A DNA stretch of 64,000 nucleotides from a bacterium (GTDB taxonomy: Bacteria > Bacillota > Clostridia > Lachnospirales > Lachnospiraceae). The DNA lies in the NCBI GenBank assembly GCA_023664305.1, contig JAMPFT010000019.1:1-64000 (forward strand). The letters run 5' to 3'. Under the pieces are notes generated by a model. The model was not told the origin of the DNA. It worked only from the letters and a program-made list of their open reading frames with translations, and searched no databases. This document shows, piece after piece, positions 19,965 to 26,823 of the stretch. Position numbers and translations under genes: made by a program. Positions within the stretch are counted from its first letter, which is position 1. Every line of letters starts with the position of its first letter.

Positions 19965-21161
19965 ATGAAGAAGAAAACAGTAACAATAATCCTTACAGCG
20001 ATTGTGGCGGTGTCTCTCGTTTTTGGAGGATGCGGCGCAGCCGGGGAGACCGGCAACAGAGCGGAAAAAAATACGGAGACCGAAGAAACGGGGAATACGG
20101 GAGACCCGGCGCTGGCGGAAGATTCCGAAGCAGAAGGGACAAAAGAATCAGAGCAGGAGGAACAGCCGGAGGAAGCAAATGAATCTGAGGAGAACCAGGA
20201 GCCGGAAGCTGTATGGAACCTGACGAAATATATACGATACGACTCGAACGGCAGCATCTCTTCCAGTACAGAGTACGAATATGACGAAAGCGGGAACCAG
20301 ACGAAATATACCTATTATGGGTCAGACGGCAGCGTCTCTTCCAGTACAGAGTACGAATATGACGAAAGCGGGAACCAGACGAAATATACCTATTATGGGT
20401 CAGACGGCAGTGTTTCTTCCAGTATGGAGATGGAATATGACGAAAGCGGGAACCAGACGAAAGAGATCTATTATGGGTCAGACGGCAGCATTTCTTATAA
20501 TATAGAGATGGAATATGACGGAAGCGGGAACCGGACGAAATTGATCTATTATGGCTCGGACGGCAGCGTTTCTTATAGTGACGAGTGGGAATATGACGGA
20601 AATGGGAACCTGACAAAACAGATCGATTATGGCTCGGACGGCAGCGTTTCCTCCAGTACGGAGATGGAATACGACGAAAACGGGAACCAGACAAGATATA
20701 TATGGTACAATTCGGACGGCAAGGCTTCTAATAGCATAGAGAGGGAATATGACGGAAACGGGAATTTGACGAAACAGATAAATTATGGATCAGATGGCAG
20801 CGTTTTTTACAGTGTAGAGTGGGAATATGACGGAAGCGGGAACCAGGTAAAACAGATCCATTATGCACCGGACGGCAGCGTTTTCACTTCAGAGTGGGAA
20901 TATGACGGAAACGGGAACCAGATAAAACATGTGTATTCCGGTTCGAACACGGACGGCAACGCTTCTTACAGTGAAGAGATGGAATATGACGGAAGCGGGA
21001 ACAAGACGAAACATGTATGGTACGATTCGGACGGCAATGTTTCTTCCGATGAAGAGTGGGAATATGATGAAAACGGGAACCAGACGAAACATATCTATTA
21101 TGAATCAGACGGCAGCGTTTATTACAGTGAAGAGTGGGAATACCGTAAATTTGGAAACTAA
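19965..21161 (+). CDS. Secreted lipoprotein made of YD/RHS-like 26-residue repeats
   Basis: A lipoprotein signal (Lys-rich start, hydrophobic core, lipobox VFGGC with Cys at about 23) is followed by a Glu-rich linker (about 30-85). About eleven 26-residue repeats with core YD-x-GN-x-TK and YGSDGS then run to the C-terminus. Such YD repeats form beta-strand arrays on cell surfaces and resemble single RHS strands. There is no RHS core or toxin domain. The protein should be anchored outside the membrane. Repeats one and two are almost identical in DNA, a sign of recent expansion. AGGAAGAAGT precedes the start. Confidence 0.8.
   Translation: MKKKTVTIILTAIVAVSLVFGGCGAAGETGNRAEKNTETEETGNTGDPALAEDSEAEGTKESEQEEQPEEANESEENQEPEAVWNLTKYIRYDSNGSISSSTEYEYDESGNQTKYTYYGSDGSVSSSTEYEYDESGNQTKYTYYGSDGSVSSSMEMEYDESGNQTKEIYYGSDGSISYNIEMEYDGSGNRTKLIYYGSDGSVSYSDEWEYDGNGNLTKQIDYGSDGSVSSSTEMEYDENGNQTRYIWYNSDGKASNSIEREYDGNGNLTKQINYGSDGSVFYSVEWEYDGSGNQVKQIHYAPDGSVFTSEWEYDGNGNQIKHVYSGSNTDGNASYSEEMEYDGSGNKTKHVWYDSDGNVSSDEEWEYDENGNQTKHIYYESDGSVYYSEEWEYRKFGN
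20216..21150 (+). repeat. 78-bp coding repeats
   Basis: About twelve units of 78 bp inside the lipoprotein gene. The first two (around 20271 and 20349) are nearly identical, while later ones have diverged. The period is a multiple of three, so unit number can vary in frame. Confidence 0.85.
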
Positions 21162-21292: not shown

Positions 21293-21345
21293 GTTATTGG
21301 CGGCAAGAAAGAAATGGGTTTTTACCAAAAATATGATGTAAAAAA

Positions 21346-21386
21346 TGAAGGGATATTTCAAAGAAATGAATTGAAATATCCCTTTA
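21346..21386. terminator. Bidirectional hairpin element, copy 1
   Basis: GGGATATTTCAA and TTGAAATATCCC form a 12-bp stem around a short AT-rich loop, flanked by A and T runs. It lies between the lipoprotein region and the minus-strand ATPase remnant. A near-identical copy is at 23924-23962. Confidence 0.75.
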
Positions 21387-21396
21387 TCTCTACTTT

Positions 21397-21655
21397 TAAT
21401 CCTTCAGACATCCGATGGGGACTACATACACACCGTCCTGCCTTCGGTAAGCATAGTCGCCGATTCCGATAAGCGCCATCAAAAAAGTCGGCGGCTTCAT
21501 TTTGGTCGTATCAATTCGTCCTACAACTTTGGAGCAATCTGCTCGGCCGTTGTTGTTTTTCCGCACCATTTGGGCCCCTCAATCAGGACGGCCCCTTTTC
21601 CGGCTAACCGTCTTTTTAATATCTCGTCCGCAATTCTTCCCTTATATTTCTTCAT
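21397..21655 (-). pseudogene. Internally deleted AAA ATPase (AAA_14/DUF4143 type) remnant
   Basis: Read from 21655 downward, an ATG opens about 44 codons containing IEGPKWCGKTTTAEQIAP, a Walker A typical of the AAA_14/DUF4143 ATPases. The frame then stops. After a frame change, about 45 codons encode KPPTFLMALIGIGDYAYRR and end VVPIGCLKD, the usual C-terminus of that family. The roughly 300 residues between are gone. This is a deletion relic, not a gene. AGGCATGATTTGCA precedes the ATG with a GGAGG, so the 5' end was once a real start. Confidence 0.8.
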
Positions 21656-21713: not shown

Positions 21714-21805
21714 GCAATTTATTTTTCGGCAATTCGGCTAATTATTTTTCGGTTGTTTGGCATTTATTTTTTCGGCAAGTTGGCACTTATTTTTTCGGTG
21801 ATTTG
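21714..21805 (+). repeat. 23-bp tandem repeat, four units
   Basis: Four units of 23 bp share the core TTATTTTTTCGG followed by a variable half and TTGGCA. Units start at 21714, 21737, 21760 and 21783. The sequence is AT-rich and non-coding, lying between the ATPase remnant and the first cassette promoter. Confidence 0.85.
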
Positions 21806-21871: not shown

Positions 21872-21910
21872 ACATTTTTCCGTTGACATAAACACGGGGA
21901 GGCGTAAACT
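21872..21910 (+). promoter_or_regulatory. 39-bp promoter block, copy 1
   Basis: It contains TTGACA (21883-21888), a 16-bp GC-rich spacer and TAAACT (21905-21910). The same 39 bases, with one change, recur at 25082-25120 before the second zinc-ribbon cassette, so the block travels with these genes. Confidence 0.75.
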
Positions 21911-22006
21911 ATGGAGGAAGGAAGAAAAGCCATGAGGTATTTTCCGGTAAATGTGAGCGGAGGATACGCCTGTGATACAGAATATTATCCCGAAAATGCC
22001 TTATGA
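21911..22006 (+). CDS. Possible 31-residue leader peptide or relic
   Basis: An ATG directly after the promoter block opens 31 codons, with an internal ATG at 21932 behind AGGAAGGAAG. The product has no motif I recognise. Its position just after the -10 would give almost no leader, so it may be a relic of a lost gene. Very tentative. Confidence 0.2.
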   Translation: MEEGRKAMRYFPVNVSGGYACDTEYYPENAL

Positions 22007-22054
22007 CAAGTATTCCTGCATTATGCAAACTACACTTAAGGAGGATTTGTAAAT

Positions 22055-22654
22055 ATGTTTGATCACAAGAATTTTTTGTTTACAGTCGCAATTATAGGTA
22101 ATTTTATTATTTCTCTTTTCACTATTTGGAACGCCAAAAAGTATATCTCAAAAAAGTATACGCAACAAATGCCAAAAAATAAGCAGATGATCGGAAAAGT
22201 ATTGCTTATCACAATAAGTGTCGTCGTGCTGTTAATAAGCGTTATCATGTTGTCAAGATCCAGGAAAATAATAGCGTTACAATCATACCCGGAATGGGCT
22301 GATTCAATAGACTTTATCTTTAGCACGTTTTTCCTCACCGTGGCTAATATTAATTTTTTCATTTCTTCACTTATCTTTTTAGCTGCCGATAAAAGCGAGC
22401 AAAAGAATATACAGATAATTTCGATGGCATCACTTGCAATAAGCATTTTTAGTATCTTTATCGCCACAGTAATGCTCTTTTTTATAAATTTTTGTTTAGG
22501 CATTATTGTTATTGCTGCTTATATGATAACACCTAAAACCCCTTCATCAATCGAAATAAGTAAACAGTCATCAATCTGTCCCAAATGCGGATCACCGGTA
22601 TCTGGGAATAAACAATTCTGTACAAAGTGCGGAGAAAAATTAAATACAATTTAG
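22055..22654 (+). CDS. Membrane protein with C-terminal zinc ribbon
   Basis: The 199 residues have about four or five hydrophobic segments (about 8-25, 45-65, 85-110, 120-160). A C-terminal double CxxC ribbon follows (CPKCGSPV near 171, CTKCGEKL near 188). A strong TTAAGGAGGA ribosome site precedes ATG 22055. It is the first gene after the 39-bp promoter block and is AT-rich. It differs from its neighbours in carrying the ribbon at the C-terminus and no PH-like segment. I do not recognise a named family. Confidence 0.75.
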   Translation: MFDHKNFLFTVAIIGNFIISLFTIWNAKKYISKKYTQQMPKNKQMIGKVLLITISVVVLLISVIMLSRSRKIIALQSYPEWADSIDFIFSTFFLTVANINFFISSLIFLAADKSEQKNIQIISMASLAISIFSIFIATVMLFFINFCLGIIVIAAYMITPKTPSSIEISKQSSICPKCGSPVSGNKQFCTKCGEKLNTI

Positions 22655-22675
22655 ATAACAGGAGGCTAAATCATT

Positions 22676-23302
22676 ATGTTTTGTGGAAATTGTGGAAAAC
22701 AAATCGAAGATACCAGCAATGTATGTCCTTATTGTGGGACTATGGTTGAGAAAGAAATACCTGTCGGAAATGACAATAGATATTCCCAAATATTCGTTGA
22801 ACCGGACGAAAACTATATCGCTTCTCTGGGAAACGGGTATATCAGCAGTTATTTGACCGCTAAGTCAATAAAAAGGTGTATTGCCTTTCTTTCCGATAAA
22901 CGTGTATATCTGCGCGGCAACATGATAGATACCAACAGCGGCAAGTTTCAACGCTTTAATATGCAAAAGACTATTGATTTAGAGGATATTACGGGCACTG
23001 GATTTCTCTATAGCAGTCCATTGTGGAAAGTGATATGCGCAGTTATTCTGCTTTTCGCCGGAGTCCTTATCGGAATCCCGCTAATGGCATATTTTATTTA
23101 TTTCTATCCACTACTCCTGGTGTGCATCATTTCAGCAATACTACTATTTGTATCCTACATAAAAAACAGAGCTACCTTGTTCTTTATTGAATATGCCGGT
23201 GGCTGCATTAAATTTGACGCCGCCATCTACGGTCTGGCGGAATCACAGGATTTTGAGAAACAAATCCGCAGGGCAAAAAATCATGTTAAAGGAAAAAACT
23301 GA
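22676..23302 (+). CDS. Zinc-ribbon, PH-like, two-TM protein (cassette A)
   Basis: A 208-residue protein starting with a zinc ribbon (CGNCGKQI near 3, CPYCGTMV near 17). A beta-rich segment follows (about 35-110) with SLGNGYISSYL, DKRVYLRG and DLEDITGTGFLY, like bacterial PH domains. Two membrane helices (about 120-165) and a soluble tail with IEYAGGCIKFD complete it. The product of the gene at 25149 shares all these motifs in the same order, so they are paralogues. The ATG follows ACAGGAGG. The function is unknown; ribbon plus PH-like plus TM architecture suggests a membrane-associated sensor or scaffold. Confidence 0.75.
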   Translation: MFCGNCGKQIEDTSNVCPYCGTMVEKEIPVGNDNRYSQIFVEPDENYIASLGNGYISSYLTAKSIKRCIAFLSDKRVYLRGNMIDTNSGKFQRFNMQKTIDLEDITGTGFLYSSPLWKVICAVILLFAGVLIGIPLMAYFIYFYPLLLVCIISAILLFVSYIKNRATLFFIEYAGGCIKFDAAIYGLAESQDFEKQIRRAKNHVKGKN

Positions 23303-23303
23303 T

Positions 23304-23918
23304 ATGCAATGCAGCAAATGTGGGAAAATAGTAGCTGCCGGAGCCGCATTCTGCCCTCAATGCGGCATGGCGGTTGATCAGGCAGGCTTATCTTCGGGCA
23401 ATCAGCTGCTGTATCAGCTTACGGAAAATGCCGGGCGCAACTACACAATAACCGTCAACAGGGAAAACGTCCTGTTTACCGGGGATTTTTGGTATTTAAA
23501 GGACAAGGAATTTTTAAAATCCCGTGGCAGGAATGAAAGCGCTCCGGTTAAAAATTTCATCGGGATAGGGTATCTTGCAAAACGCTCTTTCAGGAAATGC
23601 CTTCTGTTTGTCATTGCGGGTTCCGCGCTGGAAGTCGTTAAGCTGATAATGGATAAACTCACGGAATGGGTGGATAAAGCAAACGATTATCTGAAATGGA
23701 TTGATCAATCGATCAGTTTGCCGGGGTGGATGAACATAACCGTGAATGCCCTTGCAGTCCTCTGTATTCTGTTTGGTATTGCCCTGTTCTTTTCCAAAAA
23801 GAAAGTGATTGAAATTTCATTCACAGACAAAAGAATCTGTGTGCCGCAGAAAAGCATGACAGGCGGCGAATATAACATGTTGTATCAGAGTATTAGGAAG
23901 GCCAAAAACATGACATAA
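23304..23918 (+). CDS. Zinc-ribbon membrane protein (cassette A, second type)
   Basis: ATG 23304 lies 1 bp after the previous stop, behind AAAGGA, so the genes are coupled. The 204-residue product opens with a ribbon (CSKCGKIV, CPQCGMAV). A beta-rich part includes FTGDFWYLKDKEF and IGIGYLAKRS, then one or two membrane helices, and it ends FFSKKKVIEISFTDKRICV. The gene at 26350 encodes the same protein without the ribbon: it shares GDFYYL-NKEF, GLGSLRKRS and LFFSKKKVTEISF. The two cassettes therefore carry matching pairs. Function unknown. Confidence 0.75.
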   Translation: MQCSKCGKIVAAGAAFCPQCGMAVDQAGLSSGNQLLYQLTENAGRNYTITVNRENVLFTGDFWYLKDKEFLKSRGRNESAPVKNFIGIGYLAKRSFRKCLLFVIAGSALEVVKLIMDKLTEWVDKANDYLKWIDQSISLPGWMNITVNALAVLCILFGIALFFSKKKVIEISFTDKRICVPQKSMTGGEYNMLYQSIRKAKNMT

Positions 23919-23923
23919 AAAAC

Positions 23924-23962
23924 GAAGGGATATTTCAAAGAAATGAAATGAAATATCCCTTA
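23924..23962. terminator. Bidirectional hairpin element, copy 2
   Basis: This is the same stem-loop as at 21346-21386: GAAGGGATATTTCA pairs with TGAAATATCCCTT around AAGAAATGAA. It lies between the convergent cassette A and the Rpn-like gene. Confidence 0.75.
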
Positions 23963-23975
23963 ATCGCTCCCTCAT

Positions 23976-24974
23976 TTAAGCATTTGCATAGAATGCTTTT
24001 TCTGCCTCTAAATACTCCGCTTCTGTATACCCATAAGAAATAATCTGCTCTTTCGTAGCATTTGCTTTCATCATTCTCTCAATGGCATTCATTCGCTCCT
24101 GTGTGATTCCCTGCGTGATTCCTATATTATAAGACCTTTCTCTAATACTTTCTGACCAATTACACATAATCTGGATTCTCCCTTCTAATTCAGCCGTCAT
24201 CACCATTCCATATTCATCTGCTAAGATACGTTTCTTTTCTGCCGCGCCTTTCTCAGACACCAATTCTTCCAGCATGGCAATCAACTTGTTTTGAGATTTC
24301 TTTACCGTCTCTCCGGCACCGCAGTTTTTCCCGTTTCTTATATTGACGATAATAGCTTTCATCAAATCGGTGTGGTATGAGTTTTTCCTGTTCCCGAATA
24401 CAGCTTTTCTGTCAAGACCAATCTCCTCAATCGAATCCTCTGTTTCATCATTATCCATGCAGATCCAGATACTCCGAACCTTTTTCAGGTTGTCAAAATC
24501 ACTGTGAAAAAATTCTGTCTGTTTCTGTGCCGATATCATCCTCGCAAGGTAGAAAACTATCCTGTTTTCCAGATGATACCCCAGCTTGCCGGGATCTGAC
24601 GACCGCTGTGCTTCGATGTTTATAAGAATCTTAATCTCCCTTTCCACGGAGTGTACCGCTTCCATATAATGTGCGGTAAACCGGATGTCATAGTAGATGA
24701 TACCCTCTCCCGGAATATTATCCTCCGTTGCCGTCATTTTTACACGGCCTAAGTTGGAAAGGCCGGCATCAATCGGTCTTGTCCCTATCTCAATATCATT
24801 ACCGATGCAGTCCATAATATCCTGAATATCCATATCCTGAAATTCTTCGACCGTATATTTCAGGATTCGCGATAATATCTGCTTGTCTGCAAGCAGATAT
24901 TTTATACTCGCATCATATGCAGAACCCGCACCGTTCGTTGCATCAACAGCCTGTGATAAATTTGTCTCCATCAT
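23976..24974 (-). CDS. Rpn/PD-(D/E)XK nuclease family transposase-like protein
   Basis: The start is placed at 24974, where GGAGGGAAACAA precedes ATGATG; this gives 332 residues. The core shows IIYYDIRF and ILINIEAQ, the Asp and Glu-x-Gln of the PD-(D/E)XK nuclease fold. The lysine of the motif is replaced by Gln, as is common in these families. The C-terminus is helical, with ERMMKANATKEQIISYGYTEAEYLEAE. Rpn-type proteins promote recA-independent recombination and are abundant in Lachnospiraceae genomes. It splits the two zinc-ribbon cassettes and may be responsible for rearrangements here. Confidence 0.82.
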   Translation of the reverse strand: MMETNLSQAVDATNGAGSAYDASIKYLLADKQILSRILKYTVEEFQDMDIQDIMDCIGNDIEIGTRPIDAGLSNLGRVKMTATEDNIPGEGIIYYDIRFTAHYMEAVHSVEREIKILINIEAQRSSDPGKLGYHLENRIVFYLARMISAQKQTEFFHSDFDNLKKVRSIWICMDNDETEDSIEEIGLDRKAVFGNRKNSYHTDLMKAIIVNIRNGKNCGAGETVKKSQNKLIAMLEELVSEKGAAEKKRILADEYGMVMTAELEGRIQIMCNWSESIRERSYNIGITQGITQERMNAIERMMKANATKEQIISYGYTEAEYLEAEKAFYANA

Positions 24975-25081
24975 TTGTTTCCCTCCTTCATTATAAGCGA
25001 TGTAAACGATAAAATCAATTCCTATGGGCGGCAAGTTACTGTTTTGCATTTTTGGCATCTGATAAAAAGCGAGTCAAATAT

Positions 25082-25120
25082 ACATTTTTCCGTTGACATA
25101 AACACGGGGGGGCGTAAACT
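25082..25120 (+). promoter_or_regulatory. 39-bp promoter block, copy 2
   Basis: It matches 21872-21910 in 38 of 39 bases: TTGACA at 25093-25098 and TAAACT at 25115-25120. It lies 28 bp before the cassette B gene and about 107 bp upstream of the divergent Rpn-like start. Confidence 0.75.
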
Positions 25121-25148
25121 AAAGAAAAAAGCAGGAGGAACAAGTATA

Positions 25149-26213
25149 ATGAAATGTGATAAATGTGGCACAGAGATCAGTGACGGGGGCAAGTCTTGTC
25201 CTAACTGCGGAGCAGAGGCGCCTGCTGCACCGGAAGCCCCAAAACGGAAAAAACTCTGGGTTCTCTTTTCCGGTCTGGCAGTTATAATGATAGCTGTCTT
25301 ATATGTGATAGCTGTTTTATGTATAGTATCTTCGTCTTTCTTAGTAATAGCAATTTCCTTGCTTTTGTTTGCCGTTGTTCTCACAGTGTGCCTCAAAGTT
25401 CTGCGCAAAAAAAGGAAACGGGACACACAGGAAGTCGAGCAGCAAACCTTAACCGACAAAGAACTCCAAAAACTTTCACAGTATTTTGTCAGCAGAGATG
25501 AAAAATTTATCTCCTCTCTGGGGAACGGATATATTATGAATTTTCTGGTGAACAGGAGTTTCAGCAAGGGTTTTTCTTACATTACCAACAAAAGAGTTTA
25601 TTTTCGCGGAAGCTGCTTTAGCGGGCAGGGAAAATCCCTCACAAAAACAAATGAAGAACGAACAGTTGATATTAAAGACATAACAGGCAGCGGCTTTATC
25701 TATAAACGATATATCGGCATATTGCTGGGGCTGATAACAGCATTCATTGTGTTTGTGGCGGGTATTGTTGCAGTGGGTTACGGGACGCTATACATAACGC
25801 AATATGCAGCTCCAGCTCATCAGCGTCGGGCTGAAGAGATAGTCCCCGCAGCCGCCACCATCCTGAGTCTATTCCTATCCTTTGCAATCACCTGTATTCT
25901 TATCTTTCTGGACTATCTGATGAGCAGAAGAACCTTTTTCCAAATCCAATACGCCGGAGGATGTATTGCATTTGACGTCTCCTTTTATGCCAAAGCGGAA
26001 ATTGACGATTTCCAAAAACAATTGAGACGTACAAAGGATTTAGCGGAGGAATCCGCTTCCAAAATCACCGTCACCGAAGCGCCTGTGCAGCCCGCGGCAG
26101 CCCTGCAAAACAGCGTGCCGGACGATTTGCATAAAATAGCCGACCTGTTAAAGGAGGGGCTGATCTCACAGGAAGAATACGACGCTATGAAAAAGAAAAT
26201 TCTGGGGCTGTAG
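25149..26213 (+). CDS. Zinc-ribbon, PH-like, SHOCT membrane protein (cassette B)
   Basis: ATG 25149 follows GCAGGAGG. The 354-residue product has an N-terminal ribbon (CDKCGTEI, CPNCGAEA), two membrane helices (about 35-80), and a PH-like part with SLGNGYIMNFL, NKRVYFRG and DIKDITGSGFIY. Two more helices follow, then IQYAGGCIAFD and a C-terminal SHOCT domain (LHKIADLLKEGLISQEEYD). It is a longer paralogue of the 22676 product. SHOCT domains are small helical oligomerisation or docking modules found on many membrane proteins. Function unknown. Confidence 0.78.
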   Translation: MKCDKCGTEISDGGKSCPNCGAEAPAAPEAPKRKKLWVLFSGLAVIMIAVLYVIAVLCIVSSSFLVIAISLLLFAVVLTVCLKVLRKKRKRDTQEVEQQTLTDKELQKLSQYFVSRDEKFISSLGNGYIMNFLVNRSFSKGFSYITNKRVYFRGSCFSGQGKSLTKTNEERTVDIKDITGSGFIYKRYIGILLGLITAFIVFVAGIVAVGYGTLYITQYAAPAHQRRAEEIVPAAATILSLFLSFAITCILIFLDYLMSRRTFFQIQYAGGCIAFDVSFYAKAEIDDFQKQLRRTKDLAEESASKITVTEAPVQPAAALQNSVPDDLHKIADLLKEGLISQEEYDAMKKKILGL

Positions 26214-26296
26214 TGTGAGAAGAATTTCTAACCGCTCAGCAGCCAAAGGCCTGATTCTCAGGCCTGGCTGTTTCGCGGAGAAATTCTAATCTCACA
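26214..26296. repeat. 83-bp interrupted palindrome
   Basis: It begins one base after the cassette B stop. Nested arms pair from outside in: TGTGAGA/TCTCACA, AGAATTTCT/AGAAATTCT, CCGC/GCGG, CAGCC/GGCTG and AGGCCTGA/TCAGGCCT, around a 3-nt loop. It would form a long hairpin in RNA or a cruciform in DNA. Confidence 0.85.
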
Positions 26297-26327
26297 CGGA
26301 AGAATGCCAAAAACAGGCATTCTTCCG
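26297..26327. repeat. 12-bp perfect stem-loop next to the palindrome
   Basis: CGGAAGAATGCC and GGCATTCTTCCG pair perfectly around AAAAACA. No T run follows, and the ribosome site of the next gene is about 14 bp further on, so it may control read-through or translation of the 26350 gene. A shorter related stem (AAGAATGC/GCATTCTT) occurs at 45287-45305. Confidence 0.8.
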
Positions 26328-26349
26328 ATCTCATGCAAAGGGGGCAATT

Positions 26350-26823
26350 ATGGAATTGTTACAGATTGACGGCATATCTGATAAAAAGCAGTGCCACATT
26401 TCTGTTTCGGAGACGGATTTTGTCATAGAAGGTGATTTCTATTATCTGGTAAACAAAGAGTTCCGCCCTGTAAAAAGCGGCAGAGGTACTTGCAGCATAA
26501 AGGAATACATGGGGCTGGGAAGTCTGCGGAAACGCTCCCCCAAAAAGCTGCTGCAGTTTATTGTACTTGCGTGCATTTTGGAACTGTTTGATACGGTTGC
26601 CGGAAAAATTGGGGACTATCTCTTTTTTCTGGATACCGACTGGACTTCCTGGTTTGTAAACGCCGCTGCAATCCTCTGTGTGATTCAAGGACTGCGCCTG
26701 TTCTTCTCAAAGAAAAAAGTAACGGAAATCTCCTTTTTGTCAAAACGCTTTTGTGTGGATGAAAAGCTGTTCCGCAATGAGGATATAGACCGACTGCACC
26801 AACTATTGATGAAACTCCGATAA
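26350..26823 (+). CDS. Membrane protein, ribbon-less paralogue of the 23304 product (cassette B)
   Basis: A 157-residue protein with a beta-rich N-terminal half, two hydrophobic segments (about 72-90 and 103-120) and a basic end. It shares FYYLVNKEF, MGLGSLRKRS and RLFFSKKKVTEISF with the zinc-ribbon protein of cassette A but lacks the ribbon. AAAGGGGG precedes the ATG. The double hairpin separates it from the preceding cassette B gene. Function unknown. Confidence 0.72.
   Translation: MELLQIDGISDKKQCHISVSETDFVIEGDFYYLVNKEFRPVKSGRGTCSIKEYMGLGSLRKRSPKKLLQFIVLACILELFDTVAGKIGDYLFFLDTDWTSWFVNAAAILCVIQGLRLFFSKKKVTEISFLSKRFCVDEKLFRNEDIDRLHQLLMKLR

What the first reader, a model, noticed from the sequence alone, without database searches (positions are those of the whole stretch)
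21872..26823. Duplicated cassette of zinc-ribbon/PH-like/SHOCT membrane proteins: possible undescribed system
Five genes encode membrane proteins in two sets. The 22676 and 25149 products share ribbon, PH-like and TM blocks in order. The 23304 and 26350 products share a second architecture. Each set follows the same 39-bp promoter block. The genes are AT-rich, beside a PD-(D/E)XK recombinase-like gene and palindromes, as in accessory islands. I cannot link them to a known pathway.
Basis: partly seen in the sequence, partly recalled or inferred. Interest (0 to 1): 0.8.

Follow-up and report, generated by a model that had tools for sequence, protein, structure and literature searches.

The report
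Paired split-PH membrane proteins, variable stalks
A gut bacterium carries several copies of an uncharacterised two-protein membrane unit whose inner domain is cut in two by the membrane crossing and whose outer part changes rapidly while the rest stays constant, as expected if it meets changing outside attackers or signals.

Summary
In detail: two sets of membrane-protein genes, each behind the same promoter-like block, of one paired family; the genome has six pairs.

Type 1 is a PH fold with a transmembrane hairpin inserted between strands 5 and 6 (AlphaFold2; the listed structural matches are nearly all PH/GRAM/PTB-type). Type 2 is its remote paralogue. All 23 intact type 2 genes found by searching for type 2 lie directly downstream of a type 1 gene; type 1 can occur alone. 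One genome fuses type 1 to a second split-PH half.

In the SHOCT-bearing subtype the hairpin carries an outside module (TM-outside-TM part 74-406 residues in seven compared; stalk and head in a long one). It is hypervariable: at one locus shared by two genomes the upstream flank is 97% identical, the rest of the pair 93-94%, the outside part 54%.

The promoter block contains a G-tract (G7 versus G8 at that locus) and in another genome precedes four paralogous lipoproteins.

Best reading: a hetero-oligomeric envelope complex, functionally like YdbS/YdbT PH pairs, whose variable outside part recognises or blocks changing antagonists. Architecture, pairing and variability are shown; function is inferred. 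The PD-(D/E)XK neighbour is not a conserved partner.

The parts
21872..21911 (+). Promoter-like block 1: TTGACA, 16-nt spacer with interrupted G-tract (GGGGAGG), TAAACT
22055..22654 (+). Optional third gene of subtype I: membrane protein (four hydrophobic stretches) with C-terminal zinc ribbon
   Evidence: a TM + C-terminal ribbon ORF lies 12-21 nt upstream of type 1 in 5 of 11 subtype I loci, 0 of 15 others
22676..23302 (+). Type 1, short subtype: zinc ribbon, PH fold split by a TM hairpin (strands within residues 47-113, TM helices within 116-163, strands within 166-181, C-terminal helix 187-207)
23304..23918 (+). Type 2 with N-terminal zinc ribbon; remote split-PH paralogue of type 1; starts 1 nt after type 1
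25082..25121 (+). Promoter-like block 2: TTGACA, 16-nt spacer with G7 tract, TAAACT
25149..26213 (+). Type 1, SHOCT subtype: zinc ribbon, N-terminal hydrophobic segment, PH first half, TM-short outside loop-TM, PH second half, SHOCT (residues 327-352)
26350..26823 (+). Type 2 without zinc ribbon, partner of the SHOCT subtype

Best explanation
The two genes of each set encode paralogous inner-membrane proteins that form a hetero-oligomer. Each has a cytoplasmic PH fold interrupted after its fifth strand by two membrane helices. In the SHOCT-bearing subtype those helices continue outside into a variable module, at full size a long antiparallel coiled-coil stalk with a helical head. Because the outside module is spliced into the PH fold, movement or binding outside is passed directly to the strand 5/6 junction, next to the edge where bacterial PH domains are known to oligomerise; the zinc ribbons and SHOCT recruit partners. 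The complex most likely protects the envelope (recognises, excludes or exports membrane-active antagonists such as peptides), as YdbS/YdbT-type PH pairs do for leaderless bacteriocins. Hypervariability of the outside module would reflect changing antagonists. Shown by computation: type 1 PH fold split by a TM hairpin (model plus fold match), homology of the two proteins, one-way strict pairing, hypervariable middle module, repeated decay. Inferred: type 2 fold, physical complex, topology, signal path, protective role. I put the hetero-oligomer at about 0.75 (lowered from 0.8 after one search showed that the fused partner is no nearer to type 2 than to type 1) and the full statement at about 0.4.
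For: Pairing: 23 of 23 intact type 2 genes found by type 2 searches have type 1 immediately upstream on the same strand: 18 in a 101-genome genus sample, including 6 in the window genome (in G266 the type 1 frame is interrupted), 1 in the family sample, 4 further from genome contigs. A 24th pair (G544, another family) was met through a type 1 search. In L086 type 1 and a second split-PH half are one 486-aa ORF, and L088 has an overlapping pair of the same kind. Homology of type 1 and type 2: hhalign 95.4%, E 1.9e-8 with the L086/L088 partners among the type 2 rows (reversed control 5.1%, best of 30 shuffled 4.0%), 80.1%, E 1.4e-5 without them. Tree distances of 23 pairs correlate, r 0.859, 0 of 5000 permutations as high. 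PH fold; same strand order in a long member. Variable module: C33a against C33b 86% / 26% / 94% for N part / TM-outside-TM / C part; locus shared by two genomes: upstream flank 97.4% nt, N 94.1%, outside part 54.0% (195 and 333 nt), C 93.4%, type 2 94.1%. Precedent: DdE and DdF, a YdbS/YdbT-like PH pair, are reported as both required for EntDD14 transport (PMC8657885, passages). Bacterial PH domains use the open edge of strand 5 to oligomerise, and membrane forms were proposed to be transporters or pores (PMC2817789, Discussion part 1).
Confidence: 0.4

Rival explanations
1. A membrane-bound signalling device: the variable outside module senses a ligand and the PH/zinc-ribbon/SHOCT side regulates a transcription or stress factor, without itself protecting the cell.
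For: Outside module spliced into a cytosolic domain; the promoter block is shared with envelope lipoproteins in another genome; partners of PSP-type stress systems also carry SHOCT-like and ribbon domains (PMC11237479, passages).
Against: No regulator gene family recurs in 3 or more of 35 loci except a small mixed kinase-type cluster in three. A sensor would not need up to six near-copies with unlike outside parts, unless signals differ.
Confidence: 0.25
2. Phage exclusion or another anti-phage membrane system, driven by variation of phage surface proteins.
For: Eight decayed loci among those examined; low G+C; an Rpn-type gene, a family reported to be anti-phage (PMC10327210, abstract), lies between the sets; phage protein families phrog_2700 and phrog_888 share the C-terminal helix and SHOCT stretch (E 1.2e-7 and 5.7e-6 for 25149); L086 matches the PADLOC model LeoBC over residues 165-307 (E 1.3e-4).
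Against: Window proteins match no PADLOC model better than E 0.01; the Rpn gene is not recurrent; no close copies in recorded phages or plasmids.
Confidence: 0.15
3. Variable surface structures aimed at the host or at neighbours (antigenic variation or adhesion), with the stalk carrying the head outwards.
For: 95-residue helix (membrane helix plus stalk) and helical head in a long member; G7/G8 promoter tract at a shared locus; the same block precedes lipoprotein paralogues in another genome.
Against: The window genome's copies have short outside parts, TM-outside-TM 74-161 residues in the three SHOCT copies; only 1 of 18 sites has G8, and interrupted tracts of equal length suggest fixed spacing.
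Confidence: 0.15

Closest known systems
YdbS/YdbT and DdE/DdF pairs (bPH_2, PF03703, formerly DUF304)
   Same: Two adjacent co-oriented genes for membrane proteins with PH domains; both reported as required for EntDD14 transport (PMC8657885, passages).
   Different: YdbS has 2 TM and 1 PH, YdbT 6 TM and 3 PH. Here TM helices sit inside the PH fold, zinc ribbons and SHOCT are added, and there is a variable outside module. PF03703 is not among the listed matches.
DUF6232 (PF19744)
   Same: Weak match over the PH-TM hairpin-PH region of L088 type 1 (residues 102-183, E 0.075); that DUF6232 has this layout is recalled.
   Different: Far below cut-off (13.9 of 27.4 bits); also a chance-level hit elsewhere in 25149 (E 0.29).
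SHOCT-domain proteins with ribbon or PH (PF09851)
   Same: SHOCT at the C terminus; SHOCT was reported with bPH_2 in nine proteins and with double zinc ribbon in eight (PMC3581485, passages).
   Different: Pairing, a split PH or a variable ectodomain is not mentioned in the parts seen (part 1 of 4 of the text and passages).
TcaA-like ribbon membrane proteins (NF053815)
   Same: Weak match of the ribbon and first TM region of L027 (residues 2-70, E 1.3e-5).
   Different: 24.3 bits against a cut-off of 550; no PH, SHOCT or partner matched.
Enterococcal PrgA (6z9l)
   Different: Only a common arrangement (below the helical threshold of about 13); no shared domain order or sequence shown.

Membership tests
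PH superfamily (fold) | Seven-stranded barrel with C-terminal helix, in type 1 | tested here: met
PH superfamily (fold) | Same fold in type 2 | tested here: inconclusive
   Homologous to type 1 by profile; no model of type 2 made
YdbS/YdbT-type PH pair | PF03703 (bPH_2) sequence match | tested here: not met
   Not listed for six window proteins at E up to 1 (list for 25149 capped at 25 rows), nor at 0.1 for six relatives
YdbS/YdbT-type PH pair | Two adjacent co-oriented PH membrane-protein genes | tested here: met
   (type 2 PH fold itself inferred)
YdbS/YdbT-type PH pair | Bacteriocin export or resistance | not testable with these tools
   needs bench work
Zinc ribbon (PF13240) | Score above Pfam cut-off | tested here: met
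   22055, 22676, 23304 products above cut-off; 25149 at 23.6 of 25 bits; 26350 none
SHOCT (PF09851) | Score above Pfam cut-off near the C terminus | tested here: met
   25149 product 28.8 of 27 bits, residues 327-352; L027 only 22.9 bits
Known anti-phage systems (PADLOC) | Match to a defence model | tested here: inconclusive
   Window proteins: best E 0.01; relative L086: LeoBC, E 1.3e-4, residues 165-307, not followed up
Phage or plasmid cargo | Close homologue in phage or plasmid records | tested here: not met
   One type 1 and one type 2 query: 0 matches in 50,697 phage and 72,556 plasmid records; none in viral contigs

The most novel reading that the evidence does not exclude
A phase- and sequence-variable envelope recognition system of Lachnospiraceae: paralogous split-PH proteins form a membrane complex whose outside stalk-and-head module is exchanged wholesale while the rest is conserved, and whose promoter is tuned or switched by slippage of a G-tract between -35 and -10, shared with a regulon of variable surface lipoproteins.
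Probability: 0.2. Interest if true: 0.85.

Novelty: new variant of a known kind. Interest (0 to 1): 0.6.

Why it matters
If right, it gives bacterial PH domains a concrete architecture in which an outside module is wired through the middle of the PH fold. It also gives a ready experimental handle: related pairs in one genome that differ most in the outside part. Hypervariability at a fixed locus points to strong selection at the surface of gut bacteria, and the G7/G8 promoter difference is directly testable in population reads. It would extend the YdbS/YdbT theme (paired PH membrane proteins in bacteriocin biology) to a family with no assigned function.

Tried and rejected

Results against a tidy reading: the first A1 family search matched 84 of 250 genomes, mostly by ribbon alone; only six genomes had fuller matches by my reading. 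At the locus shared by C33a and G298 the stretch just downstream of type 2 does not align (44.6%); synteny resumes further down (blastn pieces), so the inside of the locus is rearranged. The type 1 and type 2 trees disagree in part of subtype I.

Caveats: many genomes are MAGs; L023 is labelled Gastranaerophilales (probably mis-binned); G544's pair lies on a 7.4-kb contig. Solitary type 1 was judged by eye within about 1.5 kb.

Full report
Observation. The five genes and the repeated block are real. The window is part of an unnamed 3.58-Mb, 44-contig genome. Type 2 relatives in named genomes (14 loci) are mostly in records labelled Lachnospiraceae, Roseburia, Lachnoclostridium, Blautia or Acetatifactor. 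Own-genome searches found type 1 at seven places: two here, two on C33, one each on C22, C21 and C11. Type 2 was found at six: beside every one of them except C11.

Two subtypes. Subtype I is a short type 1 (ribbon plus split PH) followed, in the window genome, by a type 2 with a zinc ribbon; in 5 of 11 loci an ORF with a TM segment and a C-terminal ribbon, like the window's 22055, lies just upstream. Subtype II is a longer type 1 with an added N-terminal hydrophobic segment, an outside module and SHOCT, followed by a type 2 without ribbon; some members lack the N-terminal ribbon.

Pairing. In a 101-genome genus sample, A2 matched 27 places in 15 genomes. One (G344) is a ribbon-type match. Eighteen places are intact type 2 genes, and all 18 have type 1 directly upstream. 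The other eight are four pieces in G317 with type 1 remains, a truncated G298 copy with type 1, a decayed G263 pair, a 53-aa G320 piece without type 1 found, and G256 at a contig edge. Five further intact genes (G217; L028-L031) are also paired, giving 23 of 23. G544, in another family, has a pair found through type 1. Type 1 cores occur in 21 of the 101 genomes; nine of these lack an A2 match. Of the nine, G343 has type 1 fused to a second split-PH half in one 486-aa ORF, G284 has an overlapping pair of that kind, G345 is a fragment, and six look solitary. The second halves of G343 and G284 match classic type 2 at 75.9% and type 1 at 76.3%, controls at most 10.7%: they are split-PH partners of type-2-like position, not clearly type 2. 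Further solitary type 1 genes are in G190, G039, G073, G078 and on C11. In a 250-genome family sample type 2 was in 2 genomes, one of them the window's. Among 391 genomes of the class, the L086 protein matched 3, again including the window's. Tree distances of 23 pairs correlate (r 0.859, 0 of 5000 permutations); linkage alone would also give this.

Hypervariable outside module. Among seven subtype II proteins the N and C parts are 48-94% and 73-97% identical, while the TM-outside-TM part is 20-66% over aligned residues and 74-406 residues long. At a locus shared by the window genome (C33a) and G298 (C96) the upstream 1.3 kb is 97.4% identical, the N part 94.1%, the C part 93.4% and type 2 94.1%, but the outside part only 54.0%, 195 against 333 nt; the stretch just downstream is rearranged. 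The 693-aa L027 model shows a 95-residue helix out, a helical head, and long helices back into the PH fold (pLDDT about 90-95 in the stalk, overall pTM 0.38). Structure matches are generic helical chains.

Promoter block. TTGACA, 16 nt, TAAACT, with a G-tract in the spacer. In 101 genomes the 28-nt pattern at up to 3 mismatches has 14 sites: 8 before intact cassettes, 1 before a remnant that by eye ends in the last residues of type 2 (G347), 1 at a contig edge (C1), and 4 before paralogous lipoproteins in G281, 58-61 nt from their start codons. In the 250-genome family sample only the window genome has it. The C33a and G298 promoters differ within the block only by G7 and G8, which makes the spacer 16 or 17. 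Interrupted tracts of the same total length in C10a and L034 argue for fixed spacing, so switching is a hypothesis.

Genome context. An RlmI-like RNA methyltransferase gene (one member scanned) lies near 9 of 35 loci, the cassette always on its 3' side and in both orientations, which looks like a shared insertion site. Eight loci are decayed (G266, L034, G298 second copy, G263 C132, G317, G320, G347, L035), a birth-and-death pattern.

Mechanism. Shown by computation: type 1 fold with inserted hairpin, homology, one-way strict pairing, variable module, shared promoter block. Inferred: type 2 fold, hetero-oligomer, outside location of the module, signal path through the strand 5/6 junction, and an envelope-protection role by analogy with YdbS/YdbT-type pairs (PMC8657885, passages) and with the oligomerising edge of strand 5 (PMC2817789, Discussion part 1). 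That ydbST confers bacteriocin resistance in B. subtilis is recalled; PMC3498285 (sigma-W regulon) was seen only in a listing.

Noticed in passing
window 23976-25058 (-): Rpn/PDDEXK_2-like gene between the two sets (E 3.6e-4, below cut-off). Rpn-like genes also sit beside the block-preceded lipoproteins in G281 (L134, L135, L136), but not regularly beside the cassettes.
   Followed up: partly
L134:3884-4618, L135:3860-4639, L136:7109-7870(-), L136:9146-9847(-): Four paralogous lipoproteins in one genome, each about 60 nt behind the same G-tract promoter block; no Pfam family above cut-off for the two scanned.
   Followed up: partly
L015:1840-3111, L027:2904-4106, L028:20-949, L049:3396-4592, L053:3431-4663, L108:6866-8068, L109:6321-7544, L110:11004-12263, L125:11638-12840: The 3' flank of an RlmI-like RNA methyltransferase gene looks like a recurrent site for these cassettes.
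   Followed up: partly
L086:1417-2877: Match of the fused protein to the PADLOC model LeoBC (residues 165-307, E 1.3e-4); phrog_2700 and phrog_888 share the C-terminal helix and SHOCT stretch.
   Followed up: no
window 21714-21805: About four 23-bp tandem repeats upstream of block 1; a similar stretch precedes the block at the edge of contig C1 (L054).
   Followed up: no
window 21325-21391 and 23902-23968: 67-nt direct repeat (90% identical) containing a hairpin, terminator-like by eye, on either side of the first set.
   Followed up: no
window 21396-21569 (-): Short ORF that looks like the tail of a larger gene (DUF4143-type ATPase from recall, not searched), suggesting a decayed gene upstream of the first set.
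   Followed up: no
window 19965-21161: Lipoprotein-like ORF made of repeated EYDxxGNxTK units; proteins with similar-looking YD-type repeats occur near cassettes in L015, L108 and L110 (a family of those three; the link to the window gene is by eye).
   Followed up: no
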